In this document: positions 29,511 to 45,142 of the stretch, piece by piece
Layout of the letters: every line of letters begins with the position of its first letter
Numbering within the stretch: the first letter of the stretch is position 1
Assembly (NCBI RefSeq): GCF_032191465.1
Contig: NZ_JAQOUE010000002.1
Span: forward strand, 434,001-498,000
Source: Candidatus Nitronereus thalassa
Lineage (GTDB): Bacteria > Nitrospirota > Nitrospiria > Nitrospirales > UBA8639
Reading direction: 5' to 3'
DNA length: 64,000 nt
Made by a program: the position numbers and the translations under genes
Notes under the pieces: generated by a model
What the model saw: the letters and a program-made list of their open reading frames with translations, nothing else
The model's database searches: none
Told to the model about the DNA's origin: nothing

Positions 29511-30752
29511 TTATTCTTGACCAGTCAACTTTACATTTTCCTTAAACCGCACAATCTGCACGGGTTTAAAGGCTCGATCTTTCTTTCCCAAGGCGGCACG
29601 CTGCTCAACCTCCTTCACAAATTCTTCGTCGCCATGGATAGGGGCATAGGTCAGCGTCACAATGACATCCATGGAAGGCGCATCTTTTGGGGTAGGAAAC
29701 GTAAAATTTTCTACTCGTTTCTCTTCAGGAGTCAAGACATTCTCTTTCAAGACTTTGACGGCTTCAAAATCAAACACCGTGGGGTTTCCATCTTTATCGC
29801 CAAACACGCGTTCATAGTATCGCTGCTCGGTGTACACTTTTCGCAAATTTTTCCCAAGTATCGTGAGATCGATTTCCACTCGAGACCATCCAGGATGCGG
29901 CAAGGGCAAATTATGGGGCACTAAGCTTTGAATCGTGACCTTGACTTCAGATGTCTGCCCCTTGACTTCAGTCTCAACTTCCAATTTTACGGCATCAGCT
30001 CGAACTTTTCCGAATCGCCCAGGGAAGCTATGATTGGCGATTTTACGATTGCGTTCACCATTCGCCGATTCGCCAAACTCTTCAGGCATATGACACGACT
30101 GACAATTCTTCCCCGCCTTTTGTGTCTTGGATTCTTCCCAGGCCCCTAATAATTTCGGAAGTATCTTTTCAAAACCAGGTAAATTCTCATGGCAGGTCAC
30201 GCAAAATTGCGATTGACTATATAAGGGAAGCTGCACAGACTGATGAGCCAAATTTTCTTCCGGATTTTTATAACTTCCAAACACCGTCCGATCTAATTGA
30301 TAGGTCGGATGCGGAGGATGCTGATTCGGGTCCACCTCGCTGATGAGATGACATTGCGCACAACCCACTCCATCCAACTTGGGATCGCCAGATTCAATTT
30401 CTTTGATAAACACTCCAGCATGGTCTGGATATTCTAAGACGCTGGGTGCATGGCATCGAAAACACATGGAGCCTTCCTTATCGGAAGTCGTCGCACGATA
30501 TCGTTCTAACGACACACGGAAGGGGGCACTGATGATGGACCGGGATTGAGCCGAGGCTTCCCATTCTTCAAACACCCGAAGGTGACACCGTTTGCACTTC
30601 TGTGAATGAGGAAAGGCTTTCTCCAGAGGTTTGTCAGGACTCTTTTTTGCCGCTAGGGTTTCTGCGTGAGGAAGTCCTAGAGCGAGGCTCGCCACCGCGA
30701 TCACGACCGGGAGGCCAAGTATCCAACGTAAGGAAGGCAAAAGTTTTGGCAT
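29511..30752 (-). CDS. Pentaheme cytochrome c, periplasmic (paralogue 1)
   Basis: A 413-residue exported protein with an N-terminal hydrophobic signal (ILGLPVVIAVASLALGL) and five CxxCH heme sites at residues 53-57 (CKRCH), 97-101 (CFRCH), 131-135 (CAQCH), 184-188 (CVTCH) and 217-221 (CQSCH). The heme part resembles the cytochrome c554 type. From about residue 250 a beta-sandwich-like domain with PHNLPLPHPGWSRVEID follows, as in several multiheme cytochromes. It presumably passes electrons in the periplasm. It lies 55 bases after its paralogue and closes the nine-gene run. GAGG precedes the ATG. Partner and potential are unknown. Confidence 0.88.
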   Translation of the reverse strand: MPKLLPSLRWILGLPVVIAVASLALGLPHAETLAAKKSPDKPLEKAFPHSQKCKRCHLRVFEEWEASAQSRSIISAPFRVSLERYRATTSDKEGSMCFRCHAPSVLEYPDHAGVFIKEIESGDPKLDGVGCAQCHLISEVDPNQHPPHPTYQLDRTVFGSYKNPEENLAHQSVQLPLYSQSQFCVTCHENLPGFEKILPKLLGAWEESKTQKAGKNCQSCHMPEEFGESANGERNRKIANHSFPGRFGKVRADAVKLEVETEVKGQTSEVKVTIQSLVPHNLPLPHPGWSRVEIDLTILGKNLRKVYTEQRYYERVFGDKDGNPTVFDFEAVKVLKENVLTPEEKRVENFTFPTPKDAPSMDVIVTLTYAPIHGDEEFVKEVEQRAALGKKDRAFKPVQIVRFKENVKLTGQE

Positions 30753-30807: not shown

Positions 30808-32169
30808 TTAAAAAGACTTGGTCCGAAACGTTAATAATCGTTCTGCGGCGTAATTGGTTATAATTTCTTTGGCTTTGTCTTTTTCTCGGTCACTTCCCAA
30901 GGTTGCCAGATAGCGATCAAGCAAGTCTGAATCAGGCTCAGGAATCAACGCATAACTCAGGGACGCTTCGACATAGCTTGGCGCTTGCCCTGGGTTCACT
31001 ACAATTGAAAAAGGCACACGACGCGTAGTCCCACCATTAACCAGGGGATTGGGAATTGGACCACGAAGGATCTTATCAAAGGGCAACCCAAATCTCTCCT
31101 GCTGGGTTCCTAACACATGTCCTTCCGCATTTTTGACCGTCACGGTGACAAAAAACTGTTTTAATACCGGATCTCCACCCGGGAACATATGCGGCAGGCT
31201 ACCATTACGCACCAGCACTTTTCCTTCTATCGCTTCATTGCCTTTTTGAACTTCAATATCAACACGAGGAAACCATTCGGCTTGCAGATTGCGATTGCTG
31301 AGCATAATTCCCGGAATCACTATCCCTTGGAACCAATGCCGTCCAATGGGCCGTGTCAGCGATCCTCGTTTTGAAGTCGAACTTCCCGTGGAACGCTCCA
31401 TATGACAATCCTGACAAATCGTGCCTTGCAATATTTGTCCGGGCAATTCGGCCTGGGTCACGTCTTTGACCTTGCTAAAATGGCAGGAAGCGCAAAATTG
31501 AGCACCCTGATAGACATCAGCCTGTTTGGAAGGATGCACGAGATTGTCCTCGGCATTATCATAAGGACCGAACAAGACTTTCCCAGTGTTAATCTTAAAC
31601 GCCGGGTAGTCGGTCGGATTCTCTTTCACAGAATCAATCATGTGACACGATGAACAACTGATCCCCTCGAGTCGACGTTGTTCCTTGGCCCTTCTTCCGC
31701 GTTGCTTTGGTTGTTCAGACATGACTTGGGCAATAAGGTTGCCCGTGTGTTGCGGAAAAGCCGTTACTGCCGGGGCATGACAAGCTAAACACCGCGTTTG
31801 TTCTTCACTGGTAGGATTCGTCTGCAGCCATAGACCCAGTACGGTCTTGAATACCGGAGACGTCAAAGCCGTTCCATGCAATAATGCCCCATCCACGCGA
31901 CCAAATGTTTTCAGGTCTGGCGTTTGCTCACGCATCCCTTTCCATTCTTCATAATGCCGGTCATGACATTGCTTGCAGTGATCCGACGGCAGGAACACTT
32001 GTTCAATTTCATCAATCCAGGCATGGTCTTCGTGAGCAGCTTCCCCTGGATTTTGGGCAGCCCATGAGGACAAAGGAGAAACCATAATTCCTATAAAAAC
32101 TGCGAAAACTCCAAGAGTCCTCATCCACAACGAAAAACTCGAATGCCCTGATTGTCGAAAAGATCGCAT
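30808..32169 (-). CDS. Pentaheme cytochrome c, periplasmic (paralogue 2)
   Basis: A 453-residue exported protein with a signal (LGVFAVFIGIMVSPLSSWA) and five CxxCH sites at residues 65-69, 127-131, 172-176, 226-230 and 252-256. It shares spacing, the GPYDNAEDNLVHPSKQ-type segment and the C-terminal beta domain (SLPHMFPGGDPVLKQFF) with the next gene, so the two arose by duplication and diverged. An insertion of basic residues (PKQRGRRAKEQRR) between hemes 2 and 3 is not in the paralogue. It starts eight bases after the PDZ gene stop, indicating co-transcription. The two together would provide a ten-heme electron path if they form a complex, which is inference. Confidence 0.87.
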   Translation of the reverse strand: MRSFRQSGHSSFSLWMRTLGVFAVFIGIMVSPLSSWAAQNPGEAAHEDHAWIDEIEQVFLPSDHCKQCHDRHYEEWKGMREQTPDLKTFGRVDGALLHGTALTSPVFKTVLGLWLQTNPTSEEQTRCLACHAPAVTAFPQHTGNLIAQVMSEQPKQRGRRAKEQRRLEGISCSSCHMIDSVKENPTDYPAFKINTGKVLFGPYDNAEDNLVHPSKQADVYQGAQFCASCHFSKVKDVTQAELPGQILQGTICQDCHMERSTGSSTSKRGSLTRPIGRHWFQGIVIPGIMLSNRNLQAEWFPRVDIEVQKGNEAIEGKVLVRNGSLPHMFPGGDPVLKQFFVTVTVKNAEGHVLGTQQERFGLPFDKILRGPIPNPLVNGGTTRRVPFSIVVNPGQAPSYVEASLSYALIPEPDSDLLDRYLATLGSDREKDKAKEIITNYAAERLLTFRTKSF

Positions 32170-35498: not shown

Positions 35499-36314
35499 TT
35501 AACTCGGATTCCCTTCCTTGGTCCTCTTGGCAAACCGCTGCTTTAATCGCTGCCTAGCCTCTTCCGCCTGTTCAAACATTTTACACTTTTCATACGTGTT
35601 AATAAGATTGTAGTACGCCAACGGTTCATCCGGACTATGATCGACAGCGTCTTCCATGACTTTGACGGCCATATCGGTCTTTTTCAAGGTAAAGGCAATA
35701 TCCATCAATTTGAAGCTGGACTCTAAATGCGCTGGATCAAATTCCAACACTTTCATATAGGCTTGGACCGCCATGTCCAGGGTATTGAAATCCGAAATTT
35801 GCGGGTTATCCAATTGTTCATAGACCCCCGCCAAATTATACCAGGCAATGGGATCCTCCGGAGTCACTTCAATCAGTCGCTCAAAGTACTCCTTTGCCTT
35901 CATATATTCCTTTTTTTCGCTGAGAAGCCTCCCCAAATTGAATAAAGACAACACATCATATTTATTCAATTCCAGTGCTCGTTCGAACTGCTGACAGGCA
36001 TCATCCATCATTCCCTTGGTTCCATAAATCGTCCCCAAGTTGGAATAATACATGGCCAGTGACCGGTCCATTTCAACTCTCAAGCCCTCTGCCATTTCAA
36101 TGGCCTTTTTGACCTCAGTCAGCGCCTCATCCATTCGCCCTTTACCGAAATATAATTCCCCCAGGCGGCATCGAGCTTGAAAATCATCGGGCTCTTCGCT
36201 AAGCAGCTTCTCGAGTTCGGCGATTTCCTGATCCGGAGTTAGTTGCTCTTCTGATTGAGGCGCATCCTCCGCCCCCTGACTTTGTGCTTCCGTGACGACA
36301 TCTTGCTGTTCCAT
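35499..36314 (-). CDS. TPR-repeat protein
   Basis: A 271-residue cytoplasmic protein with an acidic N-terminus (residues 1-30, Glu/Gln-rich) and about six tetratricopeptide repeats, visible in [57 protein letters not shown] and [12 protein letters not shown]. It has no enzyme domain and no signal peptide. The start at 36314 lies 16 bases past the stop of the preceding membrane protein gene, and tatA follows after 28 bases, so all are likely one transcript. It is probably an assembly or scaffold factor; the client is unknown. Confidence 0.85.
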
Positions 36315-36330
36315 TGTTCTCACAGTCCTC

Positions 36331-37455
36331 TCAGCGAATTTCACTTAATACCGGAGCCACCGGTGAGTACACCACGGGCTCTCCGATTTTGTCTCTTAAT
36401 TTCCCTAAGGTGCCACGCTTATCCAGCGTCATCAGTATGAGACCGACCACCACCATCAAGGTTAAATGGGACAATTGCAGGGCATATCCCGCCATAAACA
36501 TTAACCCGAGACCATACCCCGCTAAACGCCCAATCATCACTAATTTTATGACAGTATAGGCCCAACAGGTAAAGCCTGCCAAATACAAGGCAAAGGGCAA
36601 GTAAAATGTGTATCCCATCCCCATTTGAAATACCCACCCAATCCCCTGCCCCGCTTTTCTGGCCTCTTCAGCCAAGCCCGGGCTATACAAGGATAAAAAG
36701 AAATCAATATATAAAAAGGCAAGAAAGGTAACGCCACCACTTACCAAGAGAGTCATCGCCCATTTTCGCTGGGTTTTATTCTTGGAAAAAAACGAGGTAC
36801 TTCCATAGGACCAAAGGACAAGGATACTGGCCAGCACCATAAAGGCTTCGCCGCCACGGCTAATTTCATGAACAAGAGGTGGCGCATCGAGGATCCCCAA
36901 TAGACCATACGTCGTCGAAACCGTTTGATAATAGATCCACCCCAAAATTCCAAGGACAAAACACCCAATGGTAATCCGCTGATTCCACAGATGGTGGGAC
37001 CTCCAGAATTCCGCCATAAGGATCATAAGTATTCCCAATGACACAGTATTATAGAGAACTGCCCCCAACATGGCTGGAGGAAACACTAAATACACCACGG
37101 TGAGAACCAAGAGAAGGGACACCGAGGGCAGTAAGAAGCGGTCAAAACTACCTGACCAAATAGAGGGTTTGAGCTTTTGAATAAGGAGAATAAATAACAC
37201 GAGAAACAGCAGAATAGAGGTCACATTGAGCAGAAAAAACCCTAGAGAAGAAAGCGTTTTAAACGTTATGCGAACCGCCTCAGATTTCTCTGCCAGTTTG
37301 GCCATGTGCATGCCAAGCCGAGACGCCAATCGATAGAGCACTAACTCCAAAAAGGCGGACACCAAGAGAAATTTCAAGGCATATTCAAAGAGCAAACTTG
37401 GATTCCCTGAACGCCCCGAATCTTTTCCTGATGTCGTGACTCCCAAGACATCCAT
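36331..37455 (-). CDS. Polytopic membrane protein (hypothetical)
   Basis: A 374-residue protein with about nine or ten hydrophobic helices, for example ALKFLLVSAFLELVLY, FFLLNVTSILLFLVLFILLI, FLLPSVSLLLVLTVVYLVF and LGLMFMAGYALQLSHL. A few conserved-looking His residues lie in loops (RSHHLW, PPLVHEISRGG), and HL occurs in the last but one helix. I do not recognise the family. The arrangement could be compared with heme-handling or quinone-interacting membrane proteins, but no diagnostic motif is present. It lies between the radical SAM and TPR genes with gaps of 66 and 16 bases. Confidence 0.7.
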   Translation of the reverse strand: MDVLGVTTSGKDSGRSGNPSLLFEYALKFLLVSAFLELVLYRLASRLGMHMAKLAEKSEAVRITFKTLSSLGFFLLNVTSILLFLVLFILLIQKLKPSIWSGSFDRFLLPSVSLLLVLTVVYLVFPPAMLGAVLYNTVSLGILMILMAEFWRSHHLWNQRITIGCFVLGILGWIYYQTVSTTYGLLGILDAPPLVHEISRGGEAFMVLASILVLWSYGSTSFFSKNKTQRKWAMTLLVSGGVTFLAFLYIDFFLSLYSPGLAEEARKAGQGIGWVFQMGMGYTFYLPFALYLAGFTCWAYTVIKLVMIGRLAGYGLGLMFMAGYALQLSHLTLMVVVGLILMTLDKRGTLGKLRDKIGEPVVYSPVAPVLSEIR

Positions 37456-37521: not shown

Positions 37522-39297
37522 TCAGGAAACCGAAGAAAACTCCGCGGCATGCTGTTTTTTATGCCGCGCAATATAAAGGAGCCCATCGGCCATGGAATAG
37601 TTAAACGGCAACTCCACAACCACCTCGCTAATTTTTTCATAGACATATTGATATAACTTCTCTGCCTCTTCCGGAGTCATTCCCTCTTTGACCTCATAGA
37701 AAAATCCTAGGCTTAGGTCCTCCGCTGCCGGACGCATAATACGTTGAACTCCATACCCCCCGGGATCACTCATAATGGGAGCTTCTTTCTCGAGATCGAA
37801 TAGGCAGGGCTGACAAGAAAACCCATACGAGGAATTCAAATTCGTGTTTTCCACGATAAAGTTCATAGTTTCCAATGCTTCTTCCTGGGTCTCCGTGGGG
37901 AAGCCGACAATGACATAGCAATGCACAGCAATGCCTAAGTCCACACAGTCCACGCAAATCCGCTGAACACTTTCTTGTGTAATACCCTTTTGCATGAAGT
38001 CCATCATGCGCTTGTTATATGTTTCGAGACCAAAGACGATTTTGTGACACCCCGCATCCCGCAATTGCGTCAACAACTCACGGGAAAGGTTTTTTTCAAA
38101 CCGAAATTCTGCGGTCCACTGAATATCAAAATTGCGACTGGTGATTTCCTTGCACAACCGACGTGCGGGAGATAACGCGAGGCATTCGTCGGTAAAAAAG
38201 AAGAATGGCGTATCATATTTTTTCGATAAATATTGCAATTCATCCACAACTTTTACCGGATCTTTTTGTCTAAAATTTTGATGATCGAGAGTCAGAGCAC
38301 AAAATGCACAGTCCTTGTAATAACAGCCTCGAGAAAACTGCACAGGCAACACCGTTTTGGGAGCCAAATATTGATTAAGCGGAAATCCGTCATAATTTGG
38401 GGCCGGGTGCTGTGCAAGATTTTCTGAATAAAACGGCTGATTGACGATCACCTTTCCCTCATGACGATAAATCAAATTTGGCACTTTGGCGAAATTCTTA
38501 TGTCCCGCGAGTTGATTCACCAACTCGAGGAGAGCGGTCTCCCCCTCAAATACAATAAAATCATCCGTGAGCTGAAATAACCGTTCACAGCGTCGTAAAT
38601 TATCTACTAAACGCGTAAAGATACTTCCACCGATGGTGACATGAATTTCGGGGTTAGCTTCTTTGATCAGACGAGAGAGGGTGAGACCAGGAATAATTTG
38701 AGAAGTGGCCGTAATGGAAATACCAACAAGGTCCGGCTGGTCGTCAAGAATGGATTGAAGAAAGTACTGCCGATAGAGTTCAATATAAGGATTCTGTTCT
38801 TCATCCTTCACCGCTTTAACAATATCACGTGAGGAATAAATTGAATAACTCAGTTGGTTATCGACGACCGTCAATCGGGTGGGGAAATAGATCGACGAAA
38901 CCACTTCCAACCAACGATCAATGAGAAACAGACATTCACGATATCGATTGATATCATAAAACTCTTCACATCGCAGAGAGGCTTTTGCAGGCTCGATTTC
39001 GTCAATTAAATGGGGAAATCGATCCAAGGCTTCCACAACCTTGGCATAGTGTTCATCGCTGCCGGGTCCAAATTCGCCCTCCCTGGTTTTCTCTAATTGC
39101 TTCAGTTTATCAACCAACCGTTCATAGACCAACAACCCATAGGTACGGGTCAGGATGGTATCCAGCATTTCAATATTAAGATCTCGTTGCCTTTTTTCGG
39201 TAATCCCGGCTTGATCAAGAAAGGCAGTTAAACAGGGGAGGCTTAAGTACGGTTGAGAAGGGTGCCAACTTGGTGGAAACAACAGCGATACTTTCAC
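37522..39297 (-). CDS. B12-binding-domain radical SAM protein
   Basis: A 591-residue enzyme. The N-terminus VKVSLLFPPSWHPSQPYLSL and the segment DLVGISITATSQIIPGLTLS with VTIGGSIF match a cobalamin-binding-like Rossmann domain (about residues 1-260). The radical SAM cluster motif is GCYYKDCAFC (Cys325, Cys330, Cys333), a CX4CX2C spacing found in some B12-radical SAM groups. FFFTDECLALSP and FGLETYNKRMMDFMQKG follow in the barrel. It may make methyl transfers or rearrangements; the substrate is unknown. I start at the GTG at 39297 because GAGGGG stands six bases before it. It is the first gene of the nine-gene run. Confidence 0.85.
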   Translation of the reverse strand: MKVSLLFPPSWHPSQPYLSLPCLTAFLDQAGITEKRQRDLNIEMLDTILTRTYGLLVYERLVDKLKQLEKTREGEFGPGSDEHYAKVVEALDRFPHLIDEIEPAKASLRCEEFYDINRYRECLFLIDRWLEVVSSIYFPTRLTVVDNQLSYSIYSSRDIVKAVKDEEQNPYIELYRQYFLQSILDDQPDLVGISITATSQIIPGLTLSRLIKEANPEIHVTIGGSIFTRLVDNLRRCERLFQLTDDFIVFEGETALLELVNQLAGHKNFAKVPNLIYRHEGKVIVNQPFYSENLAQHPAPNYDGFPLNQYLAPKTVLPVQFSRGCYYKDCAFCALTLDHQNFRQKDPVKVVDELQYLSKKYDTPFFFFTDECLALSPARRLCKEITSRNFDIQWTAEFRFEKNLSRELLTQLRDAGCHKIVFGLETYNKRMMDFMQKGITQESVQRICVDCVDLGIAVHCYVIVGFPTETQEEALETMNFIVENTNLNSSYGFSCQPCLFDLEKEAPIMSDPGGYGVQRIMRPAAEDLSLGFFYEVKEGMTPEEAEKLYQYVYEKISEVVVELPFNYSMADGLLYIARHKKQHAAEFSSVS

Positions 39298-39793
39298 AGG
39301 GGTCCCCTCAAAAAACAATTCGGTCGTAAAAAATTATTGCTTATGTTTTCACTTCAATCTTCAGCTTAAACTGAAAAATCAGTTGAAAATCAAAGGATAA
39401 TCCTCTCTTCCTCTGTTTCTTATACACGCCCATTGGATTCCAACGCAACCTTACCAAAAAAGGGTTACTGTGGTGAAATATGGATGAAACCTAAAAGAAA
39501 AATGGTTCAATATTTCCAAAATTTTCTTTCCAGTCAAGGACAATTCCGAGAGAGATTTCGCTATTTTTATAAAGAGCAAAAAATATAGTAAAACCCATTA
39601 CCAAGGTTTTTTGTTCCGGGAATTAAATGAATTAATCGTGTTACATACCTTACGTAGGTTAATTATCTAAGAACACCAAGAATCTATCAAATTGAGGGTA
39701 GGGAATAAAAAAACCCTGGCAGCCCATAGGGAGCTACCAGGGTTTTTGTACTTCTGTATGAGTAAACAAAAAGCCTAAATAATCAAAAATCCT
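39298..39793. other. Intergenic region upstream of the nine-gene run
   Basis: About 500 A+T-rich bases. It contains the ribosome site of the radical SAM gene, a small hairpin (AACTGAAAAATCAGTT near 39369-39384), and the terminator of the NxrC-like gene at its right end. The promoter of the nine-gene run should lie here on the minus strand, but I could not fix a hexamer pair. Confidence 0.45.
39707..39747 (-). terminator. Terminator of the NxrC-like gene
   Basis: AAAACCCTGGCAGC pairs with GCTACCAGGGTTTT (one mismatch), with an inner CCC/GGG pair near the loop and A/T-tracts on both sides. It lies about 50 bases past the stop of the NxrC-like gene on the minus strand. Confidence 0.88.
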
Positions 39794-40747
39794 TTATGGC
39801 ATTTTTGCGGTAAACCATGTGGAAATGCCTTTCATGCCATTACGTTCGACATTTTGGCCATCCCACACTGCAAACGCCACTGGAAGACTGGCTCCAGACT
39901 TGAACTGCACATCGTTGGAGTCATTGGTTGTCAGTGAACGCTTGAACACCACCCGCCAGGTTGGTCCGCTGCAGCAACCACCCTTTAAGGCACCATATGG
40001 TTCCCACAACCCGTTGCCGATCACATCTTGTGAAGCTTGTGTGGTCAACGTGCTAAAACCATTGGCATTCAAATCTTCGACCGAACTTTTTCGAAGATTT
40101 GGGTCAGACATAATGTTACCAGACCAAATCCCAGGATTGAATGGGCCAAGGCTCCGTCCAATACGATCTGGGTAGGTCACACCACCTGCTGGTTCCTCAT
40201 AATAGAAATCCCATGCGATGGAGGGATATTGGTTATCCACATCCCACATTCCCGCAACGCCAGCACCCAGGTCTCTTTGCCATTCGGCATTCCAACGCCA
40301 GATATTGACGGTACCACCGGATTGCCCCATACATTGGAAAGGTGGCGCACCAGAGGTTTGCACAGGGAATTGCACCGCAACTTGGTCACGAAAATCTTGT
40401 GGACCAATAGTGGTGTTATTAAGAGTTTGATCACCCCAGTTTGTCCAAACCCCAATCTCTTTACCATTGGTGGCCATTTTCACCATCACGGTTTTAACAG
40501 AGATATTGGGATGCATAGGGGTAGTAATGGTTTGGCCGCTCAACGGCACCACAATACCTGGCACGGTTTCCCAAACGGGATTGGCCGCGTCCATTGGGAT
40601 GGAGCCGCTAATCTTGCCCACCGGAATTGTGACCGGTTGGCTGACGGCGAGAGGCACCTGCCCGAGCGTCAACATGACACCAACTGCCAGGGCAGAGAGC
40701 AAAATGCCGAACACCAGTCCTTTGTTACGCGTCTGCACCACTCTCAT
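39794..40747 (-). CDS. nxrC: Nitrite oxidoreductase gamma-subunit-like protein (NxrC)
   Basis: A 317-residue exported protein with a Sec-type signal (LVFGILLSALAVGVMLTLG, cleavage likely after AVS). The mature part is the ethylbenzene dehydrogenase gamma-like heme b fold: VWETVPGIVVPLSGQTITT, PPFQCMGQSGGTVNIWRWNAEWQ, KSSVEDLNANGFSTLT, WRVVFKRSL and LPVAFAVWDGQNVERNG. Met140 and Lys269 are candidate heme ligands by family analogy. In Nitrospira such proteins are candidates for the NXR electron-exit subunit. AAAGGAGG precedes the ATG, implying strong translation, and an AT-rich tract lies upstream. The TorD-like gene is 109 bases upstream. The alpha and beta subunits are not in this window, so exact pairing is inferred. 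Confidence 0.85.
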   Translation of the reverse strand: MRVVQTRNKGLVFGILLSALAVGVMLTLGQVPLAVSQPVTIPVGKISGSIPMDAANPVWETVPGIVVPLSGQTITTPMHPNISVKTVMVKMATNGKEIGVWTNWGDQTLNNTTIGPQDFRDQVAVQFPVQTSGAPPFQCMGQSGGTVNIWRWNAEWQRDLGAGVAGMWDVDNQYPSIAWDFYYEEPAGGVTYPDRIGRSLGPFNPGIWSGNIMSDPNLRKSSVEDLNANGFSTLTTQASQDVIGNGLWEPYGALKGGCCSGPTWRVVFKRSLTTNDSNDVQFKSGASLPVAFAVWDGQNVERNGMKGISTWFTAKMP

Positions 40748-40856
40748 AATGACGCATCCTCCTTTGATGAAAGATTAAAACTAGATGACTGCGGACTAAC
40801 TAACTCTTCAATTAATTTAATTAATAATTAATAAACGCACGACTTCCACACGACTA

Positions 40857-41819
40857 CTAAGCGGTCCCCGATGGACCCTGCTCCGGTTTTTCCTTTTCAA
40901 GGTAGTCCTGAGCCCCCACCTCATTCATTAACAGGCTTAATTCATTTCCTTTATCCTGTGCCCCACATTCAAAAGACTGGCCTTCTGGGTTGGAATAGTT
41001 AGCCGGACGATAGTCCGTTTCTGAATAAGGTTGAGGATTTACCGAAAGGAAATTAATTTCGAAATTTACCCAGGCTGATGTCAAATCAGCAATAGTTTTA
41101 TAAAAACCAAAGTCTGCTTTCTTCTTTAACATTCCAGAAAATAGTGGAACCCACCGCCCTACATGCTCTTTCACAAATTTCTTTTCAGCATCAATAACCA
41201 TTTGGATTTTCTCTTTTCCATCATGGCAAAGGGCATACGATTCTTTATAGGCAAGAAAATGGAGAAATTCGAGCTCTACACTCAAATGATCAAGGCGTTC
41301 ATGGATATCTTGCGACAATTGCAAGCCAAACGCTGTATAGAATCCTGAAATATCCCCCATAACATAAGATTGGCCAAATACATGATCATTACCAAATAAG
41401 GTTTCGTAGGGAGGACAATCTAACGCAATCACATTACTAAACACACGACGGTGCTCATCCCGAAGATCTTGAAGTCCCCAATTGACCCCCTCAGAGGAAA
41501 TCCACTCTTCTATTTCATCAAAGTGTTTCGCAATGGACTCAAGACTTTCTTTGGCTTCATTTCCGCCTCGATCACCCAATACTTTAATCAGACTGTCGAG
41601 AGCGGCTCTCCCATCTTCAACGAACTCTCCACTCTGCACATAATCCAGGAATTCATCATCTTCAGGATAGAGATAACTCCAGGAAAGTAACAGATATAGT
41701 TTACTTCGGGATAGGGCTTGTTCAACGGCAGGAGAATCTTTGAGGGGAGAAACTGAAGTGGCAGCAGAACTTGAAATACCGCTTACTCCATTTTGACTTT
41801 CTTTTAATTTCGTCGCCAT
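40857..41819 (-). CDS. TorD/NarJ-type molybdoenzyme chaperone
   Basis: A 320-residue, mostly helical cytoplasmic protein. SRSKLYLLLSWSYLYPEDDEF at the start of the domain, LRDEHRRVFSN, CPPYETLFG, DHLSVELEFLHFLAYKE and HVGRWVPLFSG are the typical blocks of the TorD family, which protects the apoenzyme and its Tat signal until molybdenum cofactor and clusters are inserted. It is longer than most relatives because of an N-terminal Ser-rich segment of about 30 residues and a C-terminal extension of about 60 containing SFECGAQDKGNELS. The context with the ferredoxin and NxrC-like genes suggests NXR as client. Confidence 0.88.
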   Translation of the reverse strand: MATKLKESQNGVSGISSSAATSVSPLKDSPAVEQALSRSKLYLLLSWSYLYPEDDEFLDYVQSGEFVEDGRAALDSLIKVLGDRGGNEAKESLESIAKHFDEIEEWISSEGVNWGLQDLRDEHRRVFSNVIALDCPPYETLFGNDHVFGQSYVMGDISGFYTAFGLQLSQDIHERLDHLSVELEFLHFLAYKESYALCHDGKEKIQMVIDAEKKFVKEHVGRWVPLFSGMLKKKADFGFYKTIADLTSAWVNFEINFLSVNPQPYSETDYRPANYSNPEGQSFECGAQDKGNELSLLMNEVGAQDYLEKEKPEQGPSGTA

Positions 41820-42084
41820 AGACTACCTCTTTAAATTCCTATCCGGAATAGTCTCAGCTTCCCCGATCACAGACAACGAACCATGCAGGTTTCCCTCTGT
41901 TTAGAGGGAGGCCAGATCATAGGCGAACTCTGTGGCGAAGTCAAGGTCTAATTCCAGCATTTTTGACCAAAAAAATTAACAAATCATCCCTCTTAGAGAT
42001 GAAAATTTAGAGACAAACTCAATTCAAAATCACTCCTCAAATTTAATAAAAATTAATCACCTGAACACCCGACAAAGTCTTAAC

Positions 42085-42708
42085 CTATTGAAAAGTCCTT
42101 ATCGGCATGACTTTGATGGCAATTCGATCATTCACACTGCCACAAATATATTCACAAATACCACAACCTACACATACCTCTTCATTGACGGATAACGCAA
42201 ATACCGAAAAATCCATGGTAATTGCAGACGTTGGGCACTTTGACACACAGGCATTACACCCCTGAGAAGCAGTACATTTCCGAGGGTTTACTTTTGCTAT
42301 CCCCAGCTTAACCTCAGAGACATCCCCTTTAGGGGGAAGCAAGGCTTCGGTCTCACAAGCATCAATACATGGAAGATCTTCACAAGCATAACAGGGGGTC
42401 TGGTCAGCAAATATTACCGGTCTTTCATCTTGCTGAGATACCTGAATGCTGTCATGGGGGCACACATCAACACAGTCTCCGCATGCGGTACAACGCTCAA
42501 GAAACAGGGACTCCCCTACTGCTCCTGGTGGACGTAACCAATCGCTCCGAATGGGTACGGGTTTTTCTTGAACTGGAGGTTTGGCATCTCGATGTTTAAC
42601 AAATTCTTGGACCGTGACACCCAGCGAAACCGCGGACTGCTTTAAAAAATTCCGCCGTCCGTATACTGCCTCAGGATTTCCCGTTTTCCCACCAGAGGAA
42701 TCACTCAT
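42085..42708 (-). CDS. Tat-exported ferredoxin with four [4Fe-4S] sites (NapG/MauM type)
   Basis: A 207-residue protein with a twin-arginine signal (YGRRNFLKQSAVSLG) and four cysteine groups: CTACGDCVDVCP, CYACEDLPCIDACE, CTASQGCNACVSKCP and CVGCGICEYICG. This is the pattern of NapG/MauM-type ferredoxins, which hand electrons between quinol and periplasmic enzymes. No NapH-type membrane partner is adjacent. The ATG at 42708 has AGGAGAT upstream; the frame also runs to 42732. It lies between the HExxH protein and the chaperone gene on the same strand. It may act in NXR electron transfer or assembly, by inference from position. Confidence 0.88.
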   Translation of the reverse strand: MSDSSGGKTGNPEAVYGRRNFLKQSAVSLGVTVQEFVKHRDAKPPVQEKPVPIRSDWLRPPGAVGESLFLERCTACGDCVDVCPHDSIQVSQQDERPVIFADQTPCYACEDLPCIDACETEALLPPKGDVSEVKLGIAKVNPRKCTASQGCNACVSKCPTSAITMDFSVFALSVNEEVCVGCGICEYICGSVNDRIAIKVMPIRTFQ

Positions 42709-42811
42709 AGTCTTAAGATCTCCTGGGCCCATGCCCCCCGGATGCTAAAGGGAGTAGGTTTATCACGGTCCCCCGGCAATCACCAATCACTTTCCCGCAA
42801 ATACTATGACT

Positions 42812-43810
42812 CTATACGACCCCTGCTGCTCTAAGTTTGTACACCTCGACACAACGATCGCAAGCACCATATTCAACATCCCACCCTGGATGATTTTCTC
42901 TCATATAATCCAGGACAAAAGGTTCAACATTGTTTTCTAAATCCTCAACCCAAGAATATGTGGGGAAACGACAAAGGGGACATGGAAAGCCCGGCATCAA
43001 AATATGCTTGGTGGGAACTTCGGGAATCTCACTCTCATCAACTTCGACTGCACGCTCAATGACTCGACCCGTGTCTTGGGCCATTTCAATGAGTTCGGCA
43101 TGCGTGAAATAATCTGTACGCCATAATCCTTCAAAAACAGATTCGGCTTGGTTCGGGGCAATTTTTCGATACCACGAACGAAACTCCCGCAACCGATATT
43201 CACGACTAAACATCGGCTCTTTACCGGATTGCGCAATTCGTGAATCAACATGAAGGCTCCACAACACCCGATAACGATTCAGGATGAGGTGCTCCTCCCC
43301 TGGATTCAACCCCACCTTCGTATCCGGATCATACCCAAACGCGGGATCCAACATATCAAAAATATGGGTAAGTTCATGGCGCAGATATCGATTGATGGCA
43401 GGGTCATAGAATCGGCGAGGAATAAGCTTAATACCCACCCCTTTTTTTCCTTGTTCCTCAAACTGCTTCGCAAGCTTTTCTTCGACAGTCCCCCATTTTC
43501 TGAGGATATCCACGCCTTCTTGATCCTCCTTTAGCACTCCACGCACCAGGACGATACCAATTTTATCTCGCAATTCTGGAAACTCATTAAACCCATCGCG
43601 CAAAATATCCGCAAACCCCCATTTGGCAAACAAATATTGATATAACTTTTTAAACTCCTCTTCCCGATCGTCGAGTGAAAACTTTTCATAAATGGGATCG
43701 GCAACTTCATGAAACTCATTGTAGTACGTTGGATCCCCTTCCCGTTCAGTTTTTTCAGCGAACGAGTCAATAACTTCTTGAAGAAGGGCTGGCTGAAATC
43801 GTATTTCCAT
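42812..43810 (-). CDS. HExxH-motif protein with a C-terminal zinc-binding CxxC pair
   Basis: A 332-residue cytoplasmic protein without signal peptide. A metalloprotease-like RHELTHIFD motif lies at residues 144-152 (HExxH at 145-149), following a long helical N-terminal part with many Glu and Lys. The C-terminus has CPLC (277-280) and CDRC (317-320), a likely zinc ribbon. I know no family name. It heads the block of ferredoxin, chaperone and NxrC-like genes, which suggests a role in processing or quality control of an NXR component. The enzymatic activity is untested; the HExxH may be structural. The start is followed by MEIRFQPALL, with AAGGAG before it. Confidence 0.75.
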   Translation of the reverse strand: MEIRFQPALLQEVIDSFAEKTEREGDPTYYNEFHEVADPIYEKFSLDDREEEFKKLYQYLFAKWGFADILRDGFNEFPELRDKIGIVLVRGVLKEDQEGVDILRKWGTVEEKLAKQFEEQGKKGVGIKLIPRRFYDPAINRYLRHELTHIFDMLDPAFGYDPDTKVGLNPGEEHLILNRYRVLWSLHVDSRIAQSGKEPMFSREYRLREFRSWYRKIAPNQAESVFEGLWRTDYFTHAELIEMAQDTGRVIERAVEVDESEIPEVPTKHILMPGFPCPLCRFPTYSWVEDLENNVEPFVLDYMRENHPGWDVEYGACDRCVEVYKLRAAGVV

Positions 43811-44044
43811 AATTTACTCCTTACACGCGATCACTCTGTATGAACGGGGCCTCTTTTCAACAACAAAAAACCCATTCGCATTTTTACGTATTCTTCATTC
43901 AACCACCCCAGCTTGACGGGGCGTTTCTTCGCTCGCTACTATTCATTTTATACTCTGGTAAAGGCATTATAGTCACCCCTCCTTTTCATTGGCAAGGACT
44001 TCATCGACGTACGGTTTTACGAAAAGCGAAAGGATCAATGCAGA

Positions 44045-45142
44045 ATGGATCACATGAATATATCCTCGGTTGACATTGAACCAACCCATGAGAATCTAGA
44101 GCCACTTCCAGCGCCACCTCCACCGATTGATGCCATTCCTTATTGGAAGGCAGGAGTCCAAGAGGTGAAAACATTCCGAGGACATACTCAAGGCGTCTGG
44201 AGCGTTTCCTATTCTCCGGATGGACTCACCCTAGCCAGCGGCGGCAGTGATCGTTACCTTCGCCTTTGGGAAATTGAAACTGGACGTCTCGTTCGATCTC
44301 TACGAGGTCATACCCAAGATATTCGACAGGTGGCCTATAGCCCAGATGGCAGTATTATTGCGACGGGCAGCGAAGATCGGACGATCCGAATTTGGAATCC
44401 CCAAACTGGAGAAACCACACGGCTTCTCTTTACACGATACGATCATGCTGTATGCAGCATCTCTTTTTCCCCTGACGGATTAATGTTAGCACGCGCCGGA
44501 CAAAACAAGGATATCAAAATTTGGGAAGTTACGACGGGAACGGAGCTCATGACTCTGCTCGGCAAAGACCAATATGACCACCACTGGACCGTCTGTACGG
44601 CATTTTCCCCGGATGGCATTCATTTGGTGGGTGGAAGCGACATTGGAAAATTGAAATTATATGAAGTGCTTCCAAGTGGCGAAGAAAAAATGATTTGCAA
44701 TGGTCATTGGCGGGACGAGCCAGATGATGAAGAAACCGAGCAACGTGGATTCTTTGTTGATGAACATGGAGGTTTTCAAAAGCCTATGGAATATTGGGTC
44801 GGAGCCATCACCTTTTCCCAAGACGGCAGCCAAGTGATTACTGGGGGACGGGATGCGACCATCAAATACTTTGATATGCCCGATATGAAAGAATCCCGCA
44901 CGCTCAAAGGACATAAGGAATGGATTCGGTGCCTTATACTATCCCCCGATGGGAAAATGGTGGTAAGCGCCAGCGATGACCACACTATTAAAATGTGGGA
45001 TGTGGCAACCGGACGGCAAGTTCAAACACTCAAAGGGCATGCAGGACCGGTTCGAGGAATTTCTTTCTCTCCCGATGGACGCTATTTAGCTAGCGCCTCT
45101 TTCGATCGAACCGTTCGACTTTGGAAGGGCGGCGATGACTAA
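44045..45142 (+). CDS. WD40-repeat beta-propeller protein
   Basis: A 365-residue protein with seven WD40 blades, seen as GHTQGVWSVSYSPDG, GHTQDIRQVAYSPDG, DHAVCSISFSPDG, HHWTVCTAFSPDG, YWVGAITFSQDG, GHKEWIRCLILSPDG and GHAGPVRGISFSPDG. The N-terminal 35 residues are Pro/Glu-rich and probably unstructured. Between blades four and five an acidic insertion (RDEPDDEETEQRGFFVDEHG) breaks the regular spacing. There is no signal peptide. It is divergent from the HExxH gene, with 234 bases between the starts. Propellers of this kind are protein-binding scaffolds; the partner is unknown. Confidence 0.88.
   Translation: MDHMNISSVDIEPTHENLEPLPAPPPPIDAIPYWKAGVQEVKTFRGHTQGVWSVSYSPDGLTLASGGSDRYLRLWEIETGRLVRSLRGHTQDIRQVAYSPDGSIIATGSEDRTIRIWNPQTGETTRLLFTRYDHAVCSISFSPDGLMLARAGQNKDIKIWEVTTGTELMTLLGKDQYDHHWTVCTAFSPDGIHLVGGSDIGKLKLYEVLPSGEEKMICNGHWRDEPDDEETEQRGFFVDEHGGFQKPMEYWVGAITFSQDGSQVITGGRDATIKYFDMPDMKESRTLKGHKEWIRCLILSPDGKMVVSASDDHTIKMWDVATGRQVQTLKGHAGPVRGISFSPDGRYLASASFDRTVRLWKGGDD

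What the first reader, a model, noticed from the sequence alone, without database searches (positions are those of the whole stretch)
42812..43810. HExxH protein with a zinc ribbon heading the NXR accessory block
The protein combines HELTH (145-149) with CPLC and CDRC near the C-terminus and matches no family I know. Its position upstream of the Tat ferredoxin, TorD-like chaperone and NxrC-like gene suggests a maturation protease or chaperone for NXR subunits.
Basis: partly seen in the sequence, partly recalled or inferred. Interest (0 to 1): 0.6.

Follow-up and report, generated by a model that had tools for sequence, protein, structure and literature searches.

The report
Unknown zinc protein of nitrite oxidizers
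In nearly every Nitrospirota genome tested that has the nitrite-oxidizing enzyme NXR, an unrecognised zinc protein with a protease-like signature is encoded beside that enzyme's helper genes, and it is absent where this enzyme is absent, so it is probably a dedicated but untested factor for building the enzyme.

Summary
A real 332-aa gene lies at 42812-43810 on the minus strand, with HELTH (145-149), CPLC (277-280) and CDRC (317-320). It matches no Pfam, NCBIfam, PDB-sequence or PDB-fold family. H145, E146, H149, D152, E172, E173 and the four cysteines are identical in all 51 distinct homologues aligned, including one only about 35% identical. The gene heads a conserved cluster (this gene, NapG-like Tat ferredoxin, TorD-like chaperone, NxrC, B12-radical-SAM protein, membrane protein, TPR protein), behind the strongest promoter-like site scanned in that stretch. 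In a phylum sample it is in 138 of 141 genomes of the three NXR-bearing Nitrospirales families, and at least two of the three misses are contig breaks. It is in 0 of 4 genomes of the NXR-less family. In 16 other Nitrospirota with more distant NxrB-like proteins it is absent. The one carrier found outside the order, a distant MAG, has it in a run nxrB-torD-nxrC-[gene]-ferredoxin-membrane protein. Best reading: a cytoplasmic, NXR-dedicated zinc biogenesis factor, probably a zincin-type peptidase; protease activity is inferred, not shown. The cluster is already published as NXR-diagnostic; the HExxH-plus-ribbon protein is uncharacterised.

The parts
42812..43810 (-). 332-aa HExxH + zinc-ribbon protein
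   Evidence: ORF; homologues; no family
43364..43378 (-). HELTH motif, residues 145-149 (followed by invariant D152)
   Evidence: 51/51 homologues
43292..43297 (-). E172-E173, invariant, at the start of the next predicted long helix: candidate third zinc ligand
   Evidence: invariant columns; helix 170-194
42971..42982 (-). CPLC, residues 277-280, first half of C-terminal zinc ribbon
   Evidence: 51/51 homologues
42851..42862 (-). CDRC, residues 317-320, second half of zinc ribbon
   Evidence: CxxC in 51/51 homologues
43966..43995 (-). sigma-70-like promoter TTGCCA-18-TATAAT upstream of the gene (11 of 12 consensus bases)
   Evidence: TTG[CA][CA]A-N(14-20)-TATAAT-like site in 29/47 upstream regions, 0.11 expected by shuffle; -10 box in 45/47
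43912..43917 (-). GTCAAG element downstream of the -10 box, conserved among homologues
   Evidence: GTCAAG/GTCAAC in 46/47 upstream regions
42085..42732 (-). Tat-type NapG/MauM-like ferredoxin, next gene of the cluster
40857..41819 (-). TorD/NarJ-like chaperone (type II DMSO reductase chaperone family)
39794..40747 (-). NxrC-like heme-b gamma subunit (EB_dh)
37522..39318 (-). B12-binding radical SAM protein, conserved cluster member
36331..37455 (-). membrane protein without family; homologue follows the ferredoxin in the distant genome G090
35499..36344 (-). TPR protein, conserved cluster member

Best explanation
It is a cytoplasmic zinc protein dedicated to biogenesis of the periplasmic nitrite oxidoreductase (NXR). 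An N-terminal helical region leads into a zincin-like core in which H145 and H149, with E172 or E173, would bind a catalytic zinc and E146 would activate water. A separate C-terminal zinc ribbon (C277, C280, C317, C320) would hold the substrate or the TorD-like partner. It would act on NXR subunits or their accessory ferredoxin before Tat export, most likely by a limited proteolytic cut or by checking assembly, together with the TorD-like chaperone encoded two genes downstream. Shown here: the motifs, their invariance, the conserved cluster and promoter, and the distribution with NXR inside Nitrospirota. Inferred: zinc binding, the third ligand, cytoplasmic location, peptidase activity and the substrate.
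For: Invariant H145/E146/H149/D152/E172/E173 and four Cys down to about 35% identity, while the x positions of HExxH vary. Catalytic Glu kept, which zinc binding alone would not need. Same gene order in all Nitrospirales loci examined with enough flank. Second most conserved protein of the cluster: mean 79% identity against 84% NxrC, 69% TorD, 57% ferredoxin. Distribution: gene in 138/141 genomes of NXR families f1-f3, 0/4 in NXR-less f4. In distant G090 the gene lies in a same-strand run nxrB (71% id), torD, nxrC, gene, ferredoxin, membrane protein. Absent from 16 genomes with more distant NxrB-like proteins, about 50-55% identical where listed, and no such gene in those of their operons that were inspected. 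A paper finds the cluster NITMOv2_3614-3631 (NxrC, TorD, unknown proteins) diagnostic of nitrite-oxidizing Nitrospirales and expressed (PMC12342949). No hydrophobic stretch of membrane-helix strength.
Against: No metallopeptidase family reaches its cut-off. Profile-profile comparison with SprT and M78 aligns only the HExxH motif itself. Neither AlphaFold model matches a solved structure. nxrA of G090 was not found in that 77%-complete MAG, and its run is split over two contigs joined by a 47-base overlap with one mismatch. Within the order, co-occurrence partly reflects common descent.
Confidence: 0.55

Rival explanations
1. A zinc-dependent assembly chaperone or scaffold for NXR without peptidase activity; the HExxH helix is structural.
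For: Clustered with a TorD chaperone and a NapG-like ferredoxin; no peptidase family or fold match; large helical part in the model.
Against: E146, needed for catalysis but not for zinc binding, is invariant in 51/51 homologues.
Confidence: 0.25
2. A peptidase that acts with the neighbouring B12-radical-SAM protein on a modified peptide (RiPP-like maturation), not on NXR itself.
For: The radical SAM gene just past nxrC resembles RiPP C-methyltransferases (163.8 bits to TIGR03975, below its cut-off) and is conserved in the cluster.
Against: No obvious precursor gene in the gaps; the radical SAM gene is not seen in the two G090 contigs that keep the HExxH gene next to nxrB, torD and nxrC.
Confidence: 0.08
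3. A housekeeping or regulatory zinc protein that merely sits beside the NXR genes by vertical inheritance.
For: Within Nitrospirales the whole neighbourhood, including unrelated flanks, is conserved.
Against: Absent from the NXR-less family of the same order, and linked to nxrB-torD-nxrC in a distant class with different gene order.
Confidence: 0.1

Closest known systems
SprT/Spartan-like metallopeptidases (PF10263) with C-terminal zinc ribbon
   Same: HExxH helix followed by a C-terminal CxxC...CxxC zinc ribbon; weak hit of the G090 homologue (14.8 bits, E 0.026).
   Different: Below the 25.6-bit cut-off and no hit for the window protein; profile-profile aligns 12 columns, probability 1.3%; the SprT HGxxF third histidine is absent. 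The genome has separate SprT-like genes over the cut-off.
Atp23 / peptidase M76 (PF09768)
   Same: HExxHxxD followed after about 20 residues by a Glu, recalled from memory; weak hit of the G090 fragment (12.3 bits). Atp23 is both peptidase and assembly chaperone, a functional parallel (own knowledge).
   Different: Below cut-off 25.2 bits; no C-terminal CPLC ribbon of this kind in Atp23 (own knowledge).
TorD/NarJ redox enzyme maturation proteins
   Same: Works in the same place: cytoplasmic biogenesis of exported molybdoenzymes, same gene cluster.
   Different: TorD/NarJ proteins are all-helical chaperones without HExxH (own knowledge); the cluster has its own TorD-like gene.
NXR-diagnostic cluster NITMOv2_3614-3631 (PMC12342949) and the 'putative zinc finger' protein of NXR clusters (PMC3578206)
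   Same: By gene order this protein should be the gene next to the ferredoxin NITMOv2_3626; the 2013 paper lists a conserved putative zinc-finger protein with NXR genes in Nitrospira, Nitrospina and Kuenenia.
   Different: Neither paper's main text, in the passages read, describes HExxH or a peptidase; identity with the 2013 'zinc finger' protein could not be checked.

Membership tests
HExxH zincin metallopeptidase (general) | HExxH with catalytic Glu conserved in all members | tested here: met
   51/51 homologues
HExxH zincin metallopeptidase (general) | third zinc ligand (Glu, His or Asp) downstream on an adjacent element | tested here: inconclusive
   E172/E173 invariant and predicted to start the next helix; model coordinates not available to measure distances
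HExxH zincin metallopeptidase (general) | zincin fold | tested here: inconclusive
   strands 84-90 and 123-128 then HExxH helix 139-154, but Foldseek finds no solved structure at E<=0.001
HExxH zincin metallopeptidase (general) | zinc-dependent peptide bond hydrolysis | not testable with these tools
   needs biochemistry
SprT-like (PF10263) | curated profile cut-off | tested here: not met
   no hit for window protein; best relative 14.8 of 25.6 bits; profile-profile 1.3%
SprT-like (PF10263) | third ligand His in an HGxxF motif | tested here: not met
   absent from alignment; an HGxxF motif is present in the SprT sequences printed
Peptidase M76 / Atp23 (PF09768) | curated profile cut-off | tested here: not met
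   12.3 of 25.2 bits for the G090 fragment only
Peptidase M78 / ImmA-IrrE (PF06114) | profile match | tested here: not met
   no Pfam hit for any family member; profile-profile aligns 8 columns, 7%
NXR biogenesis factor (functional class) | co-occurrence and clustering with NXR-type genes | tested here: met
   limited to Nitrospirota
NXR biogenesis factor (functional class) | required for NXR assembly or activity | not testable with these tools
   needs a mutant or reconstitution

The most novel reading that the evidence does not exclude
A new zinc peptidase family that makes a cofactor- or assembly-dependent cut in a molybdoenzyme subunit before Tat export, a checkpoint like the hydrogenase maturation endopeptidases, for which I know no precedent in the DMSO reductase superfamily.
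Probability: 0.15. Interest if true: 0.8.

Novelty: new variant of a known kind. Interest (0 to 1): 0.5.

Why it matters
NXR makes nearly all biological nitrate, and how its exported Mo/Fe-S complex is built in Nitrospira is unknown beyond a TorD-like chaperone. A dedicated, highly conserved and uncharacterised zinc protein gives a concrete test target, a possible marker for true NXR-bearing genomes within Nitrospirota, and a likely missing part for heterologous NXR production.

Tried and rejected
Family membership in SprT, M76 and M78: rejected by cut-offs and profile-profile comparison. Fold searches of the whole model against PDB and viral models and of the core against PDB: nothing significant. 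Sigma-54 site upstream (the cluster lies beside an NtrC-type regulator): matches at chance level. Plasmid and viral collections: no homologue. Reaching other phyla through an E. coli locus: not possible. Apparent absences or broken copies: G154 has a run of N, G250 has its N-terminal part elsewhere on the contig, G298 and G385 have contig ends just past torD, G222 lacks the torD gene too in its assembly.

Full report
Observation. The ORF 42812-43810 is on the minus strand and encodes 332 aa. HELTH is at 145-149, CPLC at 277-280 and CDRC at 317-320. Shuffling gives HExxH in 2.1% of permuted sequences and the double CxxC in 0.005%, so the HExxH motif needed support from homologues. It got it: 51 distinct sequences all keep HExxHxxD and CPLC-x-CxxC. 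The residues identical in all of them, including a homologue only about 35% identical, include H145, E146, H149, D152, E172, E173, D189, R191 and the four cysteines. Codon-position divergence shows purifying selection.

Family. No Pfam or NCBIfam model matches the protein, and no relative comes near a cut-off. PDB sequences give nothing. AlphaFold2 on 30 sequences gives a mean pLDDT of 83, with two strands, the HExxH helix 139-154 and a long helix 170-194 that starts with the E172-E173 pair. Foldseek finds no significant solved structure for the whole model or for the core. Profile-profile comparison with SprT and M78 sets built here aligns only the motif. The C-terminal ribbon resembles stand-alone proteins of about 60 aa (CPLC...P(E)W...G.C..C) in other Nitrospirota, one of them as a tandem pair.

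Neighbourhood. In Nitrospirales the order is HExxH gene, NapG-like Tat ferredoxin, TorD-like chaperone, NxrC, B12-radical SAM, membrane protein, TPR, with a divergent WD40 gene and a two-component system upstream. The strongest promoter-like site of the 39000-44300 stretch (TTGCCA-18-TATAAT) lies 156-185 bases upstream of the HExxH start codon. A comparable site is present in 29 of 47 homologous upstream regions against 0.11 expected, and a GTCAAG/GTCAAC element in 46 of 47. The HExxH protein is the second most conserved of the cluster after NxrC.

Distribution. In 396 Nitrospirota genomes the full-length family is found in the order Nitrospirales and in one distant MAG, G090 (G200 matches by the ribbon only). 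Within the three NXR-bearing families 138 of 141 genomes have it. Two of the three exceptions end at a contig edge beside torD, and the third lacks torD in its assembly. The fourth family has neither the gene nor NXR (0 of 4), in agreement with a published statement that family UBA2166 is the only Nitrospirales clade without NXR (PMC12342949); that f4 is UBA2166 is my inference. Sixteen non-Nitrospirales genomes carry NxrB-like proteins with E below 1e-80 (about 50-55% identity where listed) and lack the gene; nine such loci, eight of them outside the order, were inspected, and none has it in the operon. NxrA or NxrB was not recovered in some Nitrospirales MAGs; I take these as assembly losses of multi-copy genes, which I did not check one by one.

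The distant case. In G090 two contigs hold, on one strand, nxrB (71% identical to the window genome's NxrB), torD, nxrC, then the HExxH gene, whose halves meet at a 47-base contig overlap with one mismatch, then a ferredoxin and a homologue of the membrane protein. The gene order differs from Nitrospirales, so the association survives rearrangement. Caveats: 77% complete MAG, no nxrA recovered.

Mechanism. The protein has no evident signal peptide or membrane helix, while the NxrA of this genome has a Tat motif (MFLSRRQFLK), so the likely site of action is the cytoplasm before export. Conservation of the catalytic Glu favours hydrolysis. I put 0.55 on an NXR-dedicated zincin-type biogenesis factor and 0.25 on a non-catalytic zinc chaperone. 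Substrate and activity are not shown.

Prior knowledge. PMC12342949 lists the cluster NITMOv2_3614-3631 as diagnostic for nitrite-oxidizing Nitrospirales and expressed. PMC6606698 reports nxrC_2 (NITMOv2_3624) and the TorD-like NITMOv2_3625 among highly transcribed genes. PMC3578206 mentions a 'putative zinc finger' protein conserved with NXR genes in Nitrospira, Nitrospina and Kuenenia, which may or may not be this protein. I found no description of an HExxH protein there.

Noticed in passing
window 37522-39318: B12-binding radical SAM protein inside the NXR accessory cluster, conserved at 67-87% identity; nearest models are RiPP C-methyltransferases and, weaker, an MCR glutamine C-methyltransferase. 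It may modify an NXR-related protein.
   Followed up: partly
window 43912-43995: Conserved promoter (TTGCMA-18-TATAAT) and a GTCAAG element in the leader upstream of the HExxH gene, the latter kept in 46 of 47 upstream regions; possible operator or leader signal.
   Followed up: partly
L085, L086, L087 (window genome, contig C1): Three nxrAB copies: the NxrB proteins are 100% identical while one NxrA is only 88% identical to the query copy, which suggests gene conversion of nxrB.
   Followed up: no
L079 7016-7420; L102 7750-7932; L103 362-541: Stand-alone zinc-ribbon proteins of about 60 aa, one as a tandem pair, resembling the C-terminal domain of the HExxH protein.
   Followed up: partly
window 29511-30752 and 30808-32169: Two multiheme c-type cytochromes near the cluster, probably the pentaheme proteins mentioned for this cluster in PMC12342949.
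   Followed up: no
window 36331-37455: Membrane protein without any family whose homologue also sits in the NXR-linked run of G090 (25% identity); another candidate NXR factor.
   Followed up: partly
window 44045-45142: WD40 propeller protein transcribed divergently from the HExxH gene in the Nitrospirales loci examined.
   Followed up: no
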